Position numbers and translations under genes: made by a program
NCBI GenBank assembly: GCA_002839645.1
Contig: PGYL01000020.1
Span: forward strand, 7,411-44,371
Length of the DNA: 36,961 nucleotides
Direction of reading: 5' to 3'
DNA from: Methanomicrobiales archaeon HGW-Methanomicrobiales-2
Lineage (GTDB): Archaea; Halobacteriota; Methanomicrobia; Methanomicrobiales; Methanoculleaceae
Shown: piece after piece, positions 2,187 through 8,677 of the stretch
How positions within the stretch are numbered: position 1 is the stretch's first letter
Layout: every line of letters begins with the position of its first letter
Notes under the pieces: generated by a model
Database searches by the model: none
Told to the model about the DNA's origin: nothing
The model's input: only the letters and a program-made list of their open reading frames with translations

Positions 2187-2618
2187 TTAGAGGGTTCCGT
2201 CCGTCAGCATCTGCTCATGACCATCGCTGAAGTGTCCGGTCACAACCACACGTTTTTGTACGGTTTGGCTCATTTTATCAATGGAATACACATTTCCTAC
2301 TGACAATTTCTCGGTAAGGCCCCCCGATGTAACAGCATTAAGAGTTTTACTATTACCAGCGACTGTGTAGTAATCCGTACCGTCAACAGTTACCTTGAGG
2401 TAATTAAGAGTAGTGACATCTGCTCCACCCTGTATGGTCACCTGTAAAGTTACCCCATCTTTCTGAAGGCCAACGGCAACGTTCTTCTGAGTCTGCACGT
2501 TATCCGTCATTCCAAACACAAACGCCGCAATAACCGCGGCGAGGATCACCGTGATGGCGACCATGAGAATTACGCCGATCACCGGCGATACTGCTTCTTC
2601 ATTCTGCTTGAAGTTCAT
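2187..2618 (-). CDS. Archaeal type IV pilin / Pilin_N domain protein
   Basis: I place the start at the ATG at 2618, giving 143 residues, because GAGGTG lies 5 bases upstream; an ATG one codon earlier is also possible. The N-terminus MNFKQNEEAVSPVIGVILMV is the class III signal of archaeal pilins. There is a short charged leader, a conserved AVSPVIG stretch, then a hydrophobic helix to about residue 36 that forms the pilus core. EppA/PibD-type peptidases cleave just before such helices. The remaining 105 residues form a beta-rich domain with repeated VTV/VTI strands. A TATA-like box lies at about 2686-2693. The protein should be assembled in the membrane into a surface pilus. The membrane-protein gene follows directly. 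Confidence 0.85.
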   Translation of the reverse strand: MNFKQNEEAVSPVIGVILMVAITVILAAVIAAFVFGMTDNVQTQKNVAVGLQKDGVTLQVTIQGGADVTTLNYLKVTVDGTDYYTVAGNSKTLNAVTSGGLTEKLSVGNVYSIDKMSQTVQKRVVVTGHFSDGHEQMLTDGTL

Positions 2619-2684
2619 CATACACCTCTTCCGACTCTGAGCCCCGATGGGGATGTCGGTCGATGAAACAAACTGTTTTCCCAT

Positions 2685-3190: not shown

Positions 3191-3403
3191 TCACCGGTCA
3201 TCCTCGTTCACCGGCAACAAACGCCGGATGGCGATCCCCGGCAGGAGTTCCTCGATCCGGTCACGGTTGCTCAGGATGGGGGTGTTATTTGTGGTGACGA
3301 AACAGATCCCTTCCCGGATCCTGGAGACCAGCAGGAAGTGCGCGTCCAGCACCACAAGGGTATCCAGGGTTTCGACCGGGGCGGCGGAGTCGTCCGCATT
3401 CTT
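3191..3403 (-). pseudogene. PIN-domain (VapC-like) toxin remnant, copy 1
   Basis: The minus-strand frame ending at the TGA at 3191-3193 reads through about 70 residues but has no start codon with a ribosome site. Its core (VVLDAHFLLVSRIREGICFV, then TTNNTPILSNRDRIEELLP) matches the last third of PIN ribonucleases, where a strand ending in TTN precedes the final acidic site. The catalytic N-terminal half is absent. The upstream end of the frame runs into the stop codon of a RelE remnant. A closely similar copy lies at 4928-5189, in the same orientation. Confidence 0.6.
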
Positions 3404-3449
3404 AACGGTAGGTGCTGTTCCGGTGCCCTGCCTCGACCATAATCCGGAG
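3236..3449. repeat. Direct repeat unit, copy 1 (decayed PIN + RelE end)
   Basis: This segment matches 4959-5217 in the same orientation. The match includes long identical runs around GGAGTTCCTCGATCCGGTCA, and the copy at 4959 carries an extra 60 to 70 bases in the middle. The two copies flank the DUF1016 nuclease gene. The repeat extends in gene order, though not in full sequence, to a HepT remnant on the right of each copy. Confidence 0.75.
3402..3449 (-). pseudogene. RelE/ParE-type toxin remnant (last 15 residues), copy 1
   Basis: The minus strand reads LRIMVEAGHRNSTYR followed by TAA. This is almost the same as the C-terminus of the intact RelE-like toxin at 5188-5448 (VLEAGHRSSIYR). The rest of the toxin and its antitoxin are missing here. 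The fragment sits between the PIN and HepT remnants in the same order as the complete copy downstream. Confidence 0.6.
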
Positions 3450-3463
3450 CCGCTACTCCAGGG

Positions 3464-3592
3464 TCAAGGACCCTTCAGCGCCAGCAGGTCATCTTCGACC
3501 ACGTTCCAGACTGCATCCCGGTCGATCCCGAAATAGTGGTGGATGAGGATGTTCCTCATCCCGATGATAGGAGATGAGCGGATCGCCCCGGA
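3464..3592 (-). pseudogene. HepT (HEPN, DUF86) toxin remnant, copy 1
   Basis: The minus strand encodes SSPIIGMRNILIHHYFGIDR and then AVWNVVEDDLLALKGP before a TGA at 3464-3466. The RNILIHHY stretch carries the HEPN RNase signature R-X4-H-X-Y, and AVWNVVEDDL is the normal HepT C-terminus. Upstream, the frame meets a stop at about 3618, so the first two thirds are lost. No MntA partner is next to it. Confidence 0.65.
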
Positions 3593-3639
3593 CGCACAAA
3601 GCGATCCCGAACTTCATCCGCTATCCTCTTATTTCCGTC

Positions 3640-4794
3640 TCAAACTCCCGAACGGATTTGTTCTTCAATAAAAGCCTGCATTTCATCTTTTCCCGGCAGT
3701 TTTAGCAGATACCTGGAGACGAAGAGATTGTTGTCCATGCCTGCCAGAGCGTATTCCACCAGCGCCTGATTTTTATGGGTGCAGAGCAGAATGCCCACCG
3801 GCGGGTTATCTCCCTCAGTCATCACGTTCTTTCTATACCAGCTCACATAGGTGTTAAGTTGGCCAATGTTTTCATGACTGAAACCGTCCAGTTTCATCTC
3901 CACCAGTACATGGCATTTAAGAATACGGTGGTAAAAAACCAGGTCCACAAAAAAATGCTCGTCGCCAATGAGTATGCGTTTCTGCCGGGCTTCGAAACAG
4001 AATCCGTGGCCTAACTCGAGAAGAAATGCTTCCAACCTTTTGAGGAGTTGACTTTCCAGATGTGATTCGCTCATTACTTCTTCAGGCTTGAGTCCCAGAA
4101 ATTCGAAAATGTAGGGGTCACGGATAGCCAGATTAGGCTCGGCCTGATCCGCATTCTGCTGTGCCACCTCTGAAAGTTTCTTTTTATCGGTCGAGAGCCC
4201 GGAGCGTTCATAATATAGACTGTTAATCTGACGTTTCAACTCGCGCACCGACCAATTACCGCGAATGCACTCGACTTCATAAAAAGCGCGCCTGGTTTCG
4301 TCCTCCAGATTGATGAGCTCCGCGAGATGGGTAAAGGAGAGTCTGGAGATCAATATCTTCCCTGCAATGCGGGATTGTGGAGTCGCTGACTCCACAATCA
4401 GAGATCCGCTATCCTGGGAGTCAATCCCCGATCCAGCGAAAAGTCTCTGCCGAACCGATGCATTCAGAAGCTGCGTCAATTGTGGAGGCAGCGCCCCCAC
4501 AATCTGTGGATAGGTGAGATAGAACCGCCGATATCGGTACAACTCCCGACGGTCGCAACGTGATATCTCCTGAGCCGTCAGAATTTCTGCAAGCCTGTCC
4601 ATCAGCCTGTCTCCATAGTCTGCACGATCAATGCCGAAACGCTCGTATTCCTCAATGTAGCAACCAATGAGCCAGTTTCTGAGCGTCAGGCTGATATTGA
4701 CCGCACGACTGGCCTGAGTAACCAGTTCATCATGAACGTGGCGGATAGACCCTACCAGTCCATCAAAATTGAATATCGGTTCTTCCGTACTCAT
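3640..4794 (-). CDS. DUF1016/YhcG-type PD-(D/E)XK nuclease
   Basis: The protein has 384 residues. Residues 1-170 form the helical DUF1016 N-terminal domain, with the typical QASRAVNISLTLRNWLIGCY and YRYRRFYLTYPQIVGALPPQ stretches. The C-terminal half is a PD-(D/E)XK nuclease fold: FVDLVFYHRILKCHVLVEMK supplies the D and E-X-K catalytic residues, followed by the usual GQLNTYVSWYR helix. Homologues occur as solitary genes in defence or mobile islands, or beside restriction systems. The reading frame is intact. Base composition is clearly lower in GC than the housekeeping genes, which suggests transfer. It is flanked on both sides by direct copies of TA debris. Substrate and biological role are unknown; I infer a role in DNA cleavage or recombination. 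Confidence 0.85.
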   Translation of the reverse strand: MSTEEPIFNFDGLVGSIRHVHDELVTQASRAVNISLTLRNWLIGCYIEEYERFGIDRADYGDRLMDRLAEILTAQEISRCDRRELYRYRRFYLTYPQIVGALPPQLTQLLNASVRQRLFAGSGIDSQDSGSLIVESATPQSRIAGKILISRLSFTHLAELINLEDETRRAFYEVECIRGNWSVRELKRQINSLYYERSGLSTDKKKLSEVAQQNADQAEPNLAIRDPYIFEFLGLKPEEVMSESHLESQLLKRLEAFLLELGHGFCFEARQKRILIGDEHFFVDLVFYHRILKCHVLVEMKLDGFSHENIGQLNTYVSWYRKNVMTEGDNPPVGILLCTHKNQALVEYALAGMDNNLFVSRYLLKLPGKDEMQAFIEEQIRSGV

Positions 4795-4927
4795 CTGTAG
4801 TGCCTCATAACCTTAGATCATCCCCTGCAGATGATCGTTGAATCGCATGACGGGGAAGAGTCGCTCTTACGAATCCTCCCATCTCCTCATCTGTTCATAT
4901 TTGCGTAGGATTACATAATCCATTTGA

Positions 4928-5189
4928 TTAACCAGCCCGGAAGACCGGATAAAACACCGGCAGGAGTTCCTCGATCCGGTCACGGTTGCTCAGGATGCGG
5001 GTGTTATTTGTGGTGACGAAACAGACCTCTTCCCGGATCATGGGGGCCGGCAGGAAATACGCATCCGGCACCACAGGGATATCCAGGGTTTCGGCCGGGG
5101 CGTTCTCCTCCCCGGGGACGTGGGCATCGCAGTCCCCGGGGGCGGCAGAAGTGGCGGAGGGCCGGGGCGGCGGGGTCGTCCGCGTTCTT
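4928..5189 (-). pseudogene. PIN-domain (VapC-like) toxin remnant, copy 2
   Basis: Read on the minus strand, the sequence carries VCFVTTNNTRILSNRDRIEE, the same C-terminal PIN segment as copy 1. Here it ends in a different tail (LPVFYPVFRAG) and a TAA at 4928-4930. Between this segment and the preceding RelE stop there is an insertion of 60 to 70 bases that shifts the frame. The N-terminal catalytic half is again absent, so no functional ribonuclease is encoded. Confidence 0.6.
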
Positions 5190-5217
5190 AACGGTAGATG
5201 CTGCTCCGGTGTCCCGC
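4959..5217. repeat. Direct repeat unit, copy 2
   Basis: This is the partner of 3236-3449. It contains the same PIN and RelE C-terminal sequence plus an internal GC-rich insertion at about 5100-5165. Here the RelE part belongs to an intact gene. The longer and more complete copy is therefore probably closer to the ancestral cassette. Confidence 0.75.
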
Positions 5218-5448
5218 CTCCAGTACAAGAATCAGGAGGTGTTCATCCTCGATCGTGAGAATAACCCGGTACCGGCCTTCCCGGAGCCGGTAGACGGGAG
5301 TCCTGGAAAACCCGGCCAGTTTCCGGACGTGCCGGTAGGGGTTCTCCCGGATCCCGGCGACCGAACGGATGATCCGGCGGGCCGCTTCGGGAGGAAGCTT
5401 CTGAAGATCCCGCCGTGCCCGGGCGGTGTAGGTGACCGTATAGGTCAT
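5188..5448 (-). CDS. RelE/ParE-superfamily toxin
   Basis: The protein has 86 residues, the usual length for the family. It opens with YTVTYTARARRDLQKLPPEA, the beta strand and Lys/Arg-rich helices seen in RelE toxins. It continues with the strand pair YRLREGRYRVILTIED and ends in LEAGHRSSIYR, where Arg, His and Tyr sit as in catalytic RelE members. The gene overlaps the upstream antitoxin by 4 bases (ATGA), so the two are co-translated. RelE proteins cleave mRNA on the ribosome, whereas ParE members poison gyrase. The conserved C-terminal Tyr argues for an RNase, but this is an inference. Confidence 0.82.
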   Translation of the reverse strand: MTYTVTYTARARRDLQKLPPEAARRIIRSVAGIRENPYRHVRKLAGFSRTPVYRLREGRYRVILTIEDEHLLILVLEAGHRSSIYR

Positions 5449-5681
5449 TCCTCCACACCAAACTCCTTTTTGATATCGTCCTCGGAGTAGAGCCGGCCGG
5501 CCTTGATGTCCTCCAGGGCTTCCTCGATACCCCGGATGGCCTCTTCACTCAGGGGCTCTTCGTCGACGGCCATGTCGAGCAGGCGGCCGATAACATCATT
5601 ATAGGACTCCTTTGGGTGCCGTTTAAGACCCTCCAGACGGTCTTTGTTCGCCGGTGTGATCCAGACGGTAGTGGCGGACAT
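5445..5681 (-). CDS. Antitoxin of the RelE-like module
   Basis: The protein has 78 residues. The N-terminal strand-helix (TTVWITPANKDRLEGLKRHP) is followed by YNDVIGRLLDMAV, then an acidic tail (EPLSEEAIRGIEEALEDIKAG) that would wrap the toxin. The same plan is seen in the antitoxin at 6614-6844, so the two modules are paralogues. These antitoxins normally bind their own promoter as dimers. The module lies alone on the minus strand between the duplicated PIN remnant and a HepT remnant. Confidence 0.8.
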   Translation of the reverse strand: MSATTVWITPANKDRLEGLKRHPKESYNDVIGRLLDMAVDEEPLSEEAIRGIEEALEDIKAGRLYSEDDIKKEFGVEE

Positions 5682-5783
5682 GTAGACGCCTATAGGTCAT
5701 TATAGGATATGAAGCGTGCGGTCGGGCAGCGTTAGATCCTCTCCTGTAACGTGAGCTGTGTACTGGCAACCCTACCTGAGCGG

Positions 5784-5855
5784 CTACTTCCGGATCAAGG
5801 GCAAGAGTTGTTCCTTAAGCGCCGGCAGGTCGCGCTCGACCACGTTCCAGGTTCC
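5784..5855 (-). pseudogene. HepT (HEPN, DUF86) remnant, copy 2
   Basis: The minus strand reads TWNVVERDLPALKEQLLPLI and RK before a TAG at 5784-5786. This matches the extreme C-terminus of HepT and the tail of copy 1 at 3464. The HEPN catalytic motif and everything before it are missing. The remnant lies to the right of the RelE module, as the first HepT remnant lies to the right of the first RelE remnant. Confidence 0.55.
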
Positions 5856-5971
5856 TGATCGCCTCCCTACCGATTTTTGGACGTGCCGCCCCGCCCCCTT
5901 CACCCCCGCAGGATAACTACAACAAAAATCATTATTCCTCAAGTTCCATACTCGTCCCGGGAGTTCACATC

Positions 5972-6518: not shown

Positions 6519-6613
6519 GGACCGGAACGTTCCGGATGGCTTCCGCGATCGCCGGGGCGCTCTGCGTAACGTGACCCAAAATCCTTATACTCCTCATGAA
6601 CCTATGGTTTACT

Positions 6614-6844
6614 ATGTCCACGACGATCCAGCTTCAACCGGAGACCAAGTCCCGCCTGGACGCCCTGAAAGCCCATCCTCAGGAGAGCGATGACGAGACG
6701 CTCAACCGCATCATGGACGTATTATTCGATCCGGAACCGCTCTCCGAAGAGACGCTGCAGCGTATCGAGGAAGGGCTTGCAGACATGCGGGCCGGTCGCT
6801 GCCGCTCGCTTGAGGAGATCGCTCAGGAACTGGGCCTGGAATGA
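6614..6844 (+). CDS. Antitoxin of a second RelE-like module
   Basis: The protein has 76 residues from the ATG at 6614; an upstream in-frame ATG at 6596 would add six residues not seen in the paralogue. It begins MSTTIQLQPETKSRLDALKA and carries the acidic tail EPLSEETLQRIEEGLADMRA, matching the antitoxin at 5445-5681 in layout. It overlaps its toxin by 4 bases (ATGA). It should fold as a strand-helix-helix DNA-binding dimer and repress its own operon. Confidence 0.8.
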   Translation: MSTTIQLQPETKSRLDALKAHPQESDDETLNRIMDVLFDPEPLSEETLQRIEEGLADMRAGRCRSLEEIAQELGLE

Positions 6845-7113
6845 TCTGGCGGATCGAATTCACCCACGGAGCGGAGCGTGATCTGAAACATCTCCCGAAG
6901 TCCGATGGACAACGGATCAAAGATGAATTAACGGCTCTTGCGGAAGAACCGTTTCCCCATTTACATGTCAAAAAACTGAAAGGGCACCAGAGTAGCCCGC
7001 TGTATTCTCATCGTGTGGGGCCGTACCGGATCATTCTCGCCATCGAGAACGGGGTGATGACCATCACCGTGATTGAGGTCGGAAACCGGAGTAACGTCTA
7101 TCGGAAGTATTGA
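6841..7113 (+). CDS. RelE/ParE-superfamily toxin, second module
   Basis: The protein has 90 residues. It opens IWRIEFTHGAERDLKHLPKS, continues with the strand pair SHRVGPYRIILAIENGVMTI, and ends VIEVGNRSNVYRKY. The C-terminal Arg and Tyr correspond to those of the paralogue at 5188-5448 (GHRSSIYR), but His is replaced by Asn in GNRS. This may change activity or substrate. Translation is coupled to the antitoxin by an ATGA overlap. Downstream lies the first copy of the GC-rich repeat. Confidence 0.82.
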   Translation: MIWRIEFTHGAERDLKHLPKSDGQRIKDELTALAEEPFPHLHVKKLKGHQSSPLYSHRVGPYRIILAIENGVMTITVIEVGNRSNVYRKY

Positions 7114-7184: not shown

Positions 7185-7447
7185 CGTCACCTTATTTCAG
7201 GAGTTTTGGCGTGTGGAGGCGGGCGCTATGCCCTCCTGCAGAACAGGGAACTTTCGGCTTTGTTGAACCCGGATCTGTCTCTCCCGATGGTCGCACTCCG
7301 GGGGTGCTCTTGAGCGCGGCTTTCCACCTGGCTCGCACCTGACGGTGCTCGAACTCCGCTCCTCGCAGCCTGCTGGCTTCTCAAACTCCTGTTCGAAGCC
7401 ATTAGGCTTCTCAAGCTCCAGACATTGTCCGTCGCACCCTGCGGACA
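7185..7447 (+). repeat. GC-rich interspersed repeat, copy A (partial)
   Basis: The left end (GTCACCTTATTTCAGGAGTT, then TTGGCGTGTGGAGGCGGGCG) aligns with the left end of copy B at 24096. A unique insertion of about 55 bases follows, and then the shared blocks 'GTCGCACTCC', 'GCGGCTTTCCACC' and 'CGGTGCTCGAACTCCG'. The hairpin-rich right half found in copies B and C is missing. The copy ends inside the 3' end of a hepT pseudogene, whose frame runs on into it. Confidence 0.7.
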
Positions 7448-7745
7448 GGTCTGCCTGAATTCGGGAAGTTCTTCTTCAACGATTGCCCACACCGCTTCTA
7501 AATCCACACTCATATACTGGTGGCTCAGGACATCTCTGAGGCCGGCGATCCGGCGCCAGGGAATATCCGGGTGCTCCTGTTTCAGGGAATCCGGGATCCG
7601 CTTGCCTCCCCGATGACCTCAAAGTTCCGTATCACCGCGCCCTGCGCCATCGGAGAGCCCATGAACGCATCCCGTCCTCCGCGGGTATAGTCCTCTATCT
7701 TCCCCGGTGAAGAATATGGATGGGATAAAGCCGGTCGTCCTTCAC
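7440..7745 (-). pseudogene. hepT (HEPN, DUF86) toxin pseudogene with two frameshifts
   Basis: Reading from a GTG at 7745, the gene encodes MKDDRLYPIHILH, a frameshift, KIEDYTRGGRDAFMGSPMAQ and GAVIRNFEVIGEA, a second frameshift, then RIPDSLKQEHPDIPWRRIAG, LRDVLSHQYMSVDLEAVWAI and VEEELPEFRQT. The RDVLSHQY stretch is the R-X4-H-X-Y HEPN motif, so the active site is still readable. The 3' end fuses with repeat copy A. MntA lies immediately upstream on the same strand, the standard MNT-HEPN order. Two independent frameshifts make this a pseudogene unless the sequence has errors. Confidence 0.75.
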
Positions 7746-7757
7746 AGCGGCACGGCC

Positions 7758-8048
7758 TCACGGAGAGATGCGGTCCCTGATGTACCGGTGCAGTCCTCCC
7801 TCGGTAACCACATCGACTTCGCGGCCGAGCAGGTCTTTTAAGTCCTGGGCGAGAGCGATGTGGTCGAGGAGGCTCCTCCCCGGCTCGAACACGACCCGGA
7901 GGTCGAGGTCGCTCTCCGGGGTCTCCTCGCCCCGCCCCACCGATCAAAAGACTCTGACCCTGCGGGCCCCGTGTCTGGCTGCGACCGCGAGGATCTCTTC
8001 CCTTCGTTCGAGCAAATCGTCATGCAGGCTCATCAGCCTCTCCCGCAT
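7758..8048 (-). pseudogene. mntA (minimal nucleotidyltransferase antitoxin) with an in-frame stop
   Basis: Reading from an ATG at 8048 or 8033, the frame gives MSLHDDLLERREEILAVAAR, HGARRVRVF, then TGA, then SVGRGEETPESDLDLRVVFE and a normal MntA end (EVDVVTEGGLHRYIRDRISP). The TGA at 7944-7946 replaces the Gly of the GSxxRG nucleotide-binding motif (GGA to TGA, one base), while the catalytic DLDL pair is kept. Full length would be 96 residues. MntA adds AMP to HepT to silence it. Here both partners are broken. Confidence 0.78.
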
Positions 8049-8149
8049 CGATCTTGTGGAGCGGGATATCGGGGTTCGCCCGGGAGGTTGGTGTCCCCCC
8101 GACGGAGGTGCTGCGGGATAACCCCCGGCAGGCCGGAGTTGTCCGGCCC

Positions 8150-8677
8150 CTACTCCCGCCACCGCGGCAGCGTCGAGAGGTACTGCCGCACCATCTCCTT
8201 CGCTCTATCCAGAGGCATCCCGAGGTTTGAAGCCATCATCGGCGCGTACTGCTCGACCGCCTGCTCCCGGGTAAGACCGGGCTCGACGAACCTCCCGTCC
8301 CGGTAGCAGTAGGTGCAGTAGTTCGTCGAGAGCGAACCGTCCGCCTCCGTCCCGGCGTCCTCGTCGCGGGCAAGGGGCATCCCACAGCTCCCGCAGGCAG
8401 GGATCTCCCTCCCGGTCCACCTCTTCAGGCACGACATCTGTTCCCGGGCGAACCGTTCTGCATTTGCGGCAGGGATGCAAAACAACTGCGACAGGATCGC
8501 GGAGCACTTCTCCGCCATCTCGTCGATGGTGATCCCGGGTTCGACGAAAGCACCGCTTTGGTAGCAGTTCGCGCAGTAGTCCTTCGAGAGTGTGCCGTCC
8601 GCTTCCGTCCCGAAATGCTCCTCTGCGCTCATCGGCATCCCGCAGCTCTGACACGATCGTATTCCGCCTGTTTCCAT
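8150..8677 (-). CDS. Tandem zinc-ribbon protein
   Basis: The protein has 175 residues made of two similar halves. Each has a CxxCGMP start (CQSCGMPMSAEEHFGTEADG; CGSCGMPLARDEDAGTEADG), then a YCxxCY pair (YCANCYQSGAFVEPGITIDE; YCTYCYRDGRFVEPGLTREQ), giving four cysteines per zinc site. Each half ends in a helical tail. This matches the 'putative zinc ribbon' family (Zn_ribbon_2-like) found in many anaerobes; the function is unknown. The start is fixed by AGGAGG 6 bases before the ATG at 8677, and a TATA-like box lies at about 8748-8758. It looks monocistronic. Confidence 0.8.
   Translation of the reverse strand: METGGIRSCQSCGMPMSAEEHFGTEADGTLSKDYCANCYQSGAFVEPGITIDEMAEKCSAILSQLFCIPAANAERFAREQMSCLKRWTGREIPACGSCGMPLARDEDAGTEADGSLSTNYCTYCYRDGRFVEPGLTREQAVEQYAPMMASNLGMPLDRAKEMVRQYLSTLPRWRE

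What the first reader, a model, noticed from the sequence alone, without database searches (positions are those of the whole stretch)
3191..5855. Duplicated PIN-RelE-HepT cassette in direct orientation around a DUF1016 nuclease gene
The order PIN remnant, RelE end, HepT remnant at 3191-3592 is repeated at 4928-5855 as PIN remnant, intact RelE plus antitoxin, HepT remnant. Long stretches are nearly identical in DNA. The nuclease gene (3640-4794), with lower GC, lies exactly between. This resembles either a tandem duplication with the cargo inside the unit, or an insertion by recombination between repeats. Homologous exchange between the repeats would excise the nuclease gene.
Basis: partly seen in the sequence, partly recalled or inferred. 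Interest (0 to 1): 0.6.

Follow-up and report, generated by a model that had tools for sequence, protein, structure and literature searches.

The report
Nuclease gene between duplicated toxin-gene remnants
In a methane-producing archaeon, a probable anti-virus nuclease gene sits between two copies of the same broken toxin-gene remnants; comparison with related species suggests that such remnants act as landing sites by which defence genes are swapped between species without any dedicated mobile-element enzyme.

Summary
The repeat is real but smaller than described. Copies 3238-3434 and 4957-5220 share a PIN-like toxin fragment fused to a ParE (RelE-superfamily) 3' end: 90% identical over 146 and 59 nt, longest exact run 41 nt. 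Both carry the same PIN|ParE fusion point. The HepT leg does not belong: the tails are 72% identical and lie in different contexts in other species. The host is a Methanoculleus species. The same block (ParE tail, HepT tail, DUF1016/YhcG nuclease, PIN end) occurs in five other species at the same hypervariable toxin-antitoxin locus. Synonymous divergence of the nuclease from its relatives is 0.07-0.09, against 0.44-0.57 for neighbouring genes, so the block crossed species; identity falls where it meets the PIN copies. Two related genomes hold the PIN gene uninterrupted, one demonstrably at this locus. In strain MH98A the left copy holds PIN codons 161-239 and the right copy 78-225, the overlap that single-crossover insertion into PIN predicts. 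I favour insertional homologous recombination over simple tandem duplication. The nuclease is intact, under purifying selection, and matches a candidate phage-defence family (PDC-S02). No excised form was seen among 35 species genomes. Ordinary in parts; a neat example of integrase-free defence-gene turnover.

The parts
3191..3383 (-). PIN_A: C-terminal part (residues about 161/169-239 of 241) of a PIN-like toxin gene, left copy; repeat tract 3238-3383
   Evidence: tblastn to intact PIN of G025 67%; blastn to copy B 90%/146 nt
3384..3440 (-). ParE tail A: last ~14 codons of the ParE toxin with TAA-stop variant, fused to PIN_A at ...GTCGTCC|GC(A/G)TTCTTAACGG
   Evidence: same junction as copy B and as all A copies in G004, G006, G007, G012, G013
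3441..3600 (-). HepT_A tail (HepT residues about 39-81), includes RNxLIHHY motif; not paralogous to HepT_B by the same duplication
   Evidence: tblastn to HepT_G008 74%; 99% identical to G004 HepT_A, 72% to HepT_B
3640..4794 (-). Intact DUF1016_N + YhcG_C PD-(D/E)XK nuclease, 384 aa; PADLOC PDC-S02
   Evidence: Pfam 2.9e-53 and 1.8e-25; PDC-S02 1.2e-126; catalytic VDLVFYH..VLVEMK conserved; dN/dS 0.16-0.28
4795..4930 (-). Upstream region of the nuclease, transferred with it (93-99% in five other species)
   Evidence: segment identities
4931..5187 (-). PIN_B: PIN residues 225 down to about 161, right copy; repeat tract 4957-5102 plus 5103-5187
   Evidence: tblastn 60% to PIN_G025; copy of 3238-3383
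5188..5448 (-). Intact ParE toxin (PF05016), 86 aa; its 3' end 5162-5220 is the second repeat tract
   Evidence: Pfam 3.3e-8; dN/dS 0.14-0.22
5445..5681 (-). Intact antitoxin (DUF7557, RelB/VapB-like), 78 aa, overlapping ParE start
   Evidence: Pfam 9.2e-10; dN/dS 0.09-0.18
5787..5861 (-). HepT_B tail (last ~21-25 codons); continuous with a full HepT-MNT module in G018, truncated in W, G004 and G008
2187..2684 (-). Left conserved border of the hypervariable island: archaeal type IV pilin
   Evidence: PF07790 2.1e-19; same neighbour in most related islands
8150..8677 (-). Right conserved border of the island: double zinc-ribbon protein
   Evidence: PF12674 1.2e-50; same neighbour in related islands

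Best explanation
The locus is a hypervariable toxin-antitoxin/defence island. A candidate anti-phage nuclease with linked relics (ParE tail, HepT_A tail) was inserted by homologous recombination into, or next to, a resident PIN-like toxin gene. The incoming DNA carried an internal piece of that gene (codons ~161-225), so insertion left a partial PIN copy on each side. That is the direct repeat seen here. In this strain and in G004, the right-hand PIN copy continues into a PIN|ParE-antitoxin allele; in G013 it continues into PIN itself; in G006, G007 and G012 it has been cut back and joined to an MNT gene. Shown: the repeats, the shared junctions, the uninterrupted PIN alleles, the cross-species spread of the block. 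Inferred: that a crossover in PIN created the repeat; that the repeats still allow excision of a ~1.72-kb nuclease segment or its exchange between strains; that the nuclease acts against invading DNA; that the intact ParE-antitoxin pair works as a type II toxin-antitoxin module and helps retain the locus.
For: Uninterrupted PIN plus partner gene at the same pilin/zinc-ribbon locus in G025, and intact in G019, whose short contig does not show the locus. G013: left copy codons 161-239, right copy 78-225, overlap equal to the repeat. The nuclease-to-PIN codon 225 junction and the PIN161|ParE-tail|HepT_A junctions are constant in six genomes, while three different continuations follow PIN_B. Nuclease dS 0.066-0.093 against 0.44-0.57 for two flanking genes. 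Identity drops from 90-97% in ParE tail+HepT_A to 76-81% in PIN_A for all five comparisons (p = 0.013 to 3.5e-8), and PIN_B is 76-82% in three of the five, about the level of the pilin and core genes. Diagnostic indels show exchange between copies: A_W carries the B-type TTATTTGTGG tract, B_G013 the A-type deletion.
Against: No excised form and no nuclease-free PIN|ParE allele was seen in the 35 genus genomes, one genome per species. A circular or linear donor was not observed. An ancestral tandem duplication followed by differential loss and gene conversion could give much of the same pattern. The A/B repeat is already 10% diverged, so recombination between copies is either rare now or recent events involved other alleles. 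Drops in identity may partly reflect relaxed constraint on relics. The G013 right-hand copy could itself be a later recombinant with a G025-like allele.
Confidence: 0.55

Rival explanations
1. Simple tandem duplication of a unit [PIN - ParE - antitoxin - HepT - nuclease], followed by loss of ParE-antitoxin from the left copy and of the nuclease from the right copy.
For: Both copies share the derived PIN|ParE fusion with a TAA stop variant, seen nowhere else in the genus. W and G004 hold both copies.
Against: HepT tails are not sister copies (72%). No nuclease remnant follows HepT_B, where a ParE-like 3' edge follows instead. The right PIN copy in G013 lacks the PIN|ParE fusion and runs on to codon 78. 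The left copy extends 14 codons further than the right at the PIN 3' end.
Confidence: 0.25
2. Successive insertion of co-oriented toxin-antitoxin modules, each destroying the 5' part of the older toxin and leaving a stack of 3' tails; the ParE module entered PIN twice at the same point, as a site-specific cassette.
For: The ParE-antitoxin cassette has the same sharp 3' edge, at the ParE stop codon, in nine genomes with different neighbours. All relics in this locus are 3' tails.
Against: No integron integrase over the curated cut-off in 35 genomes and no conserved site motif at the cassette edges. Two independent hits at the identical base, with the identical stop-codon variant, are unlikely.
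Confidence: 0.12
3. The similarity is only family-level resemblance of common toxin genes, with no duplication at all.
For: True for the HepT leg.
Against: 90% DNA identity with 41-nt and 27-nt exact runs, and a shared chimeric junction, for PIN+ParE.
Confidence: 0.03

Closest known systems
Defence islands / toxin-antitoxin-rich genomic islands of prokaryotes
   Same: Clustered TA modules, nucleases and their pseudogenes between conserved genes, with content differing between species; the nuclease is a PADLOC candidate defence gene.
   Different: Here flanking toxin relics form direct repeats around one defence gene and coincide with the edges of the transferred block.
PDC-S02 / DUF1016 (YhcG) PD-(D/E)XK nuclease family
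   Same: Full-length profile match and intact catalytic motif.
   Different: Nothing unusual in the protein; bacterial relatives reach 73% identity. Function in Methanoculleus untested.
Campbell-type single-crossover integration at a homologous gene
   Same: Cargo flanked by direct repeats of the target gene, each truncated at the opposite end (G013).
   Different: No circular donor, integrase or attachment site identified; the repeats are about 200 bp.
Integron gene cassettes (also reported in Archaea, PMC9668308)
   Same: Small co-oriented TA cassettes shuffled between neighbours.
   Different: No integron integrase over cut-off in the genus and no conserved site at the cassette edges examined.

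Membership tests
DUF1016/YhcG PD-(D/E)XK nuclease (PDC-S02) | Matches Pfam DUF1016_N and YhcG_C above cut-off | tested here: met
   90.1 and 180.3 bits against cut-offs of 32.8 and 32.5
DUF1016/YhcG PD-(D/E)XK nuclease (PDC-S02) | D...(D/E)xK active-site motif present | tested here: met
   VDLVFYHRILKCHVLVEMK aligned with 12 homologues
DUF1016/YhcG PD-(D/E)XK nuclease (PDC-S02) | Protects against viruses or foreign DNA | not testable with these tools
   PDC means phage-defence candidate; needs assay
Type II toxin-antitoxin module (ParE/RelE superfamily) | Toxin profile above cut-off with adjacent overlapping antitoxin gene | tested here: met
   PF05016 34.4 bits (cut-off 23); DUF7557 38.2 bits (cut-off 25); ORFs overlap at 5445-5448
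Type II toxin-antitoxin module (ParE/RelE superfamily) | Toxicity neutralised by antitoxin | not testable with these tools
   needs expression assay
PIN-domain toxin (relic copies) | Match to PIN profile and conserved acidic residues | tested here: inconclusive
   invariant D8, E46, D190, D209 in 7 homologues; only 1 of 7 hits PF01850 (9.7e-4); hhalign to PIN proteins weak
Single-crossover (Campbell-type) insertion | Flanking direct repeats, left copy keeps native 3' end and right copy keeps native 5' part | tested here: met
   met in G013 (161-239 / 78-225); in W the right copy continues into PIN|ParE instead
Single-crossover (Campbell-type) insertion | Uninterrupted target allele exists | tested here: met
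   G025 at the same locus; G019 intact on a short contig
Single-crossover (Campbell-type) insertion | Free or excised form of the insert | not testable with these tools
   needs reads or PCR; no allele lacking the nuclease but having PIN|ParE in 35 genomes
Integron cassette array | Integron integrase (TIGR02249 over cut-off) in genome | tested here: not met
   0 of 35 over cut-off

The most novel reading that the evidence does not exclude
Toxin pseudogene relics serve as reusable homology arms by which a single-gene anti-phage nuclease is excised, exchanged and re-inserted between Methanoculleus species: an integrase-free cassette system in which dead toxin-antitoxin genes act as landing sites.
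Probability: 0.25. Interest if true: 0.5.

Novelty: new member of a known kind. Interest (0 to 1): 0.32.

Why it matters
Defence genes move between species very often, yet the enzyme that moves them is frequently missing. This locus offers a dated example: a nuclease about six times younger in synonymous divergence than its neighbours, flanked by relic repeats that coincide with the edges of the transferred block. If relics of old toxin genes act as homology arms, ordinary recombination is enough to explain rapid defence-gene turnover at fixed loci in archaea.

Tried and rejected
Chance or family-level similarity: rejected for PIN+ParE by identity and shared fusion point, accepted for HepT. 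Repeat dispersed elsewhere in the genome: rejected. Integron: no integrase over cut-off and no site motif. tRNA or Rfam attachment site: none in the window. In-frame palindromic element in the nuclease gene (26-mer at 4374-4399): only one place in the genome, dropped. Solved-structure search with the PIN-like protein or its profile gave only chance hits; the nuclease had no hit. Literature on Methanoculleus toxin-antitoxin islands and on DUF1016 function gave nothing specific; DUF1016 is listed among PD-(D/E)XK families in PMC1913061.

Full report
Observation. Two direct repeats flank an intact ORF at 3640-4794 (- strand). Tract 1 pairs 3238-3383 with 4957-5102 (146 nt, 90%); tract 2 pairs 3376-3434 with 5162-5220 (59 nt, 90%). 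The longest identical runs are 41 and 27 nt. The repeat occurs nowhere else in the 2.78-Mb genome. The ORF is a DUF1016_N + YhcG_C nuclease, the best PADLOC match is PDC-S02, and the PD-(D/E)XK motif is intact. Its GC is 0.49 against 0.60-0.61 for the copies.

What the repeats are. A 241-aa PIN-like protein, intact in G025 and G019, identifies both copies as parts of one gene: PIN_A holds residues about 161/169-239 and PIN_B about 161-225. Both are fused, at the same base, to the 3' end of a ParE toxin with an unusual TAA stop; other genomes with this ParE have mostly a TAG stop and other neighbours. Copy A then has only ~14 codons of ParE, while copy B has the whole ParE and its antitoxin. 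Copy A also lacks about 60 bp present in B, bounded by CCGGGGCG repeats.

The HepT leg fails. HepT_A (3441-3598) and HepT_B (5787-5861) are 58/81 identical against 185/205 for PIN+ParE (p = 2e-4). HepT_B is continuous with a full HepT-MNT module upstream of the antitoxin in G018. HepT_A ends at the nuclease, and it is closer to HepT of G018 and G001 (80-81% over the columns shared with HepT_B) than to HepT_B. So the claimed three-gene cassette duplication is really a duplication of a PIN fragment plus the ParE 3' end, with two separately derived HepT relics nearby.

Comparative anatomy. Between the pilin gene and the zinc-ribbon gene most species carry a different mixture of ParE-antitoxin, HepT-MNT, HEPN-MNT, HicB, PIN and nuclease genes or relics. 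The block PIN161|ParE tail|HepT_A tail|nuclease|PIN225 is constant in six genomes. What follows PIN_B varies: PIN down to codon 78 in G013; PIN|ParE-antitoxin-HepT_B in W and G004; a cut at codon ~204 joined to MNT in G006, G007 and G012. G025 holds the uninterrupted PIN and a partner gene at the same locus; G019 also holds both, but the stretch fetched is too short to show the neighbours.

Transfer. The nuclease differs from its five relatives by dS 0.066-0.093 with dN/dS 0.16-0.28, while the two flanking genes tested (thiD-like, zinc ribbon) have dS 0.44-0.57. The non-coding 4795-4930 is 93-99% identical. ParE tail+HepT_A is 90-97% identical but PIN_A 76-81% (p from 0.013 to 3.5e-8), and PIN_B is 76-94%. 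The block therefore crossed species more recently than the genomes separated, and its edges fall in the PIN copies. The nuclease reading frame is broken in G004 and G012 and intact in the other four.

Exchange between copies. A_W has the tract type of the B copies (TTATTTGTGG), whereas the A copies of the other five genomes carry an 8-bp deletion at that point; B_G013 carries the A-type deletion. Copies have thus exchanged sequence, or alleles of different type were brought in by crossovers at different points within PIN.

Mechanism. If a molecule carrying PIN codons 161-225, the relics and the nuclease recombines into a chromosomal PIN, the left copy must keep the native 3' end and the right copy must continue into native 5' sequence. 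G013 shows exactly that. Insertion into a chromosome already carrying PIN|ParE-antitoxin-HepT_B would give exactly the arrangement in W and G004. This is inference; no donor molecule and no excised form was seen, with one genome per species. Tandem duplication with later losses is the main rival.

Function. ParE and antitoxin are intact and under purifying selection in several species (dN/dS 0.09-0.22), so a working type II module is likely. The nuclease is conserved in sequence and catalytic residues and most likely cuts invading DNA; this is inferred from family membership and context only.

Verdict. Observation partly confirmed; interpretation partly supported (insertion by recombination favoured). 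A well-documented but not categorically new example of defence-gene turnover in archaea.

Noticed in passing
L050 8427-9152 and 9163-10110 (G025); also L021, L139, L140, L141, L142: Two-gene module in G025 and G019: PIN-like 241-aa protein plus a ~310-aa partner. In G025 neither has a significant Pfam or NCBIfam hit, and the partner weakly resembles PADLOC PDC-M19A (2e-5). PIN-like homologues occur in further archaea; their partners were not checked.
   Followed up: partly
window 5181-5730; L038, L043, L044, L045, L046, L047, L048, L049: ParE-antitoxin cassette with the same sharp 3' edge, at the ParE stop codon, in nine genomes with mostly unrelated left neighbours; no motif or integrase found.
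   Followed up: partly
L043 7968-8809 and L048 4675-5469: A HEPN-nucleotidyltransferase module replaces the 5' third of the ParE gene in G018 and G009.
   Followed up: no
window 7332-7419; L050 10518-10738: About 27-nt intergenic repeats shared by several Methanoculleus species, with 97-nt spacing in G025.
   Followed up: no
window 7445-8069: HepT and MNT genes broken by frameshifts or stops: a decayed HepT-MNT module at the right end of the island.
   Followed up: partly
window 6596-7113: Second, plus-strand ParE-antitoxin pair, about 40% identical to the first and 94-96% identical in DNA to copies in G004, G005 and G008.
   Followed up: partly
whole genome G000: Further DUF1016 homologues on other contigs of the same genome.
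   Followed up: no
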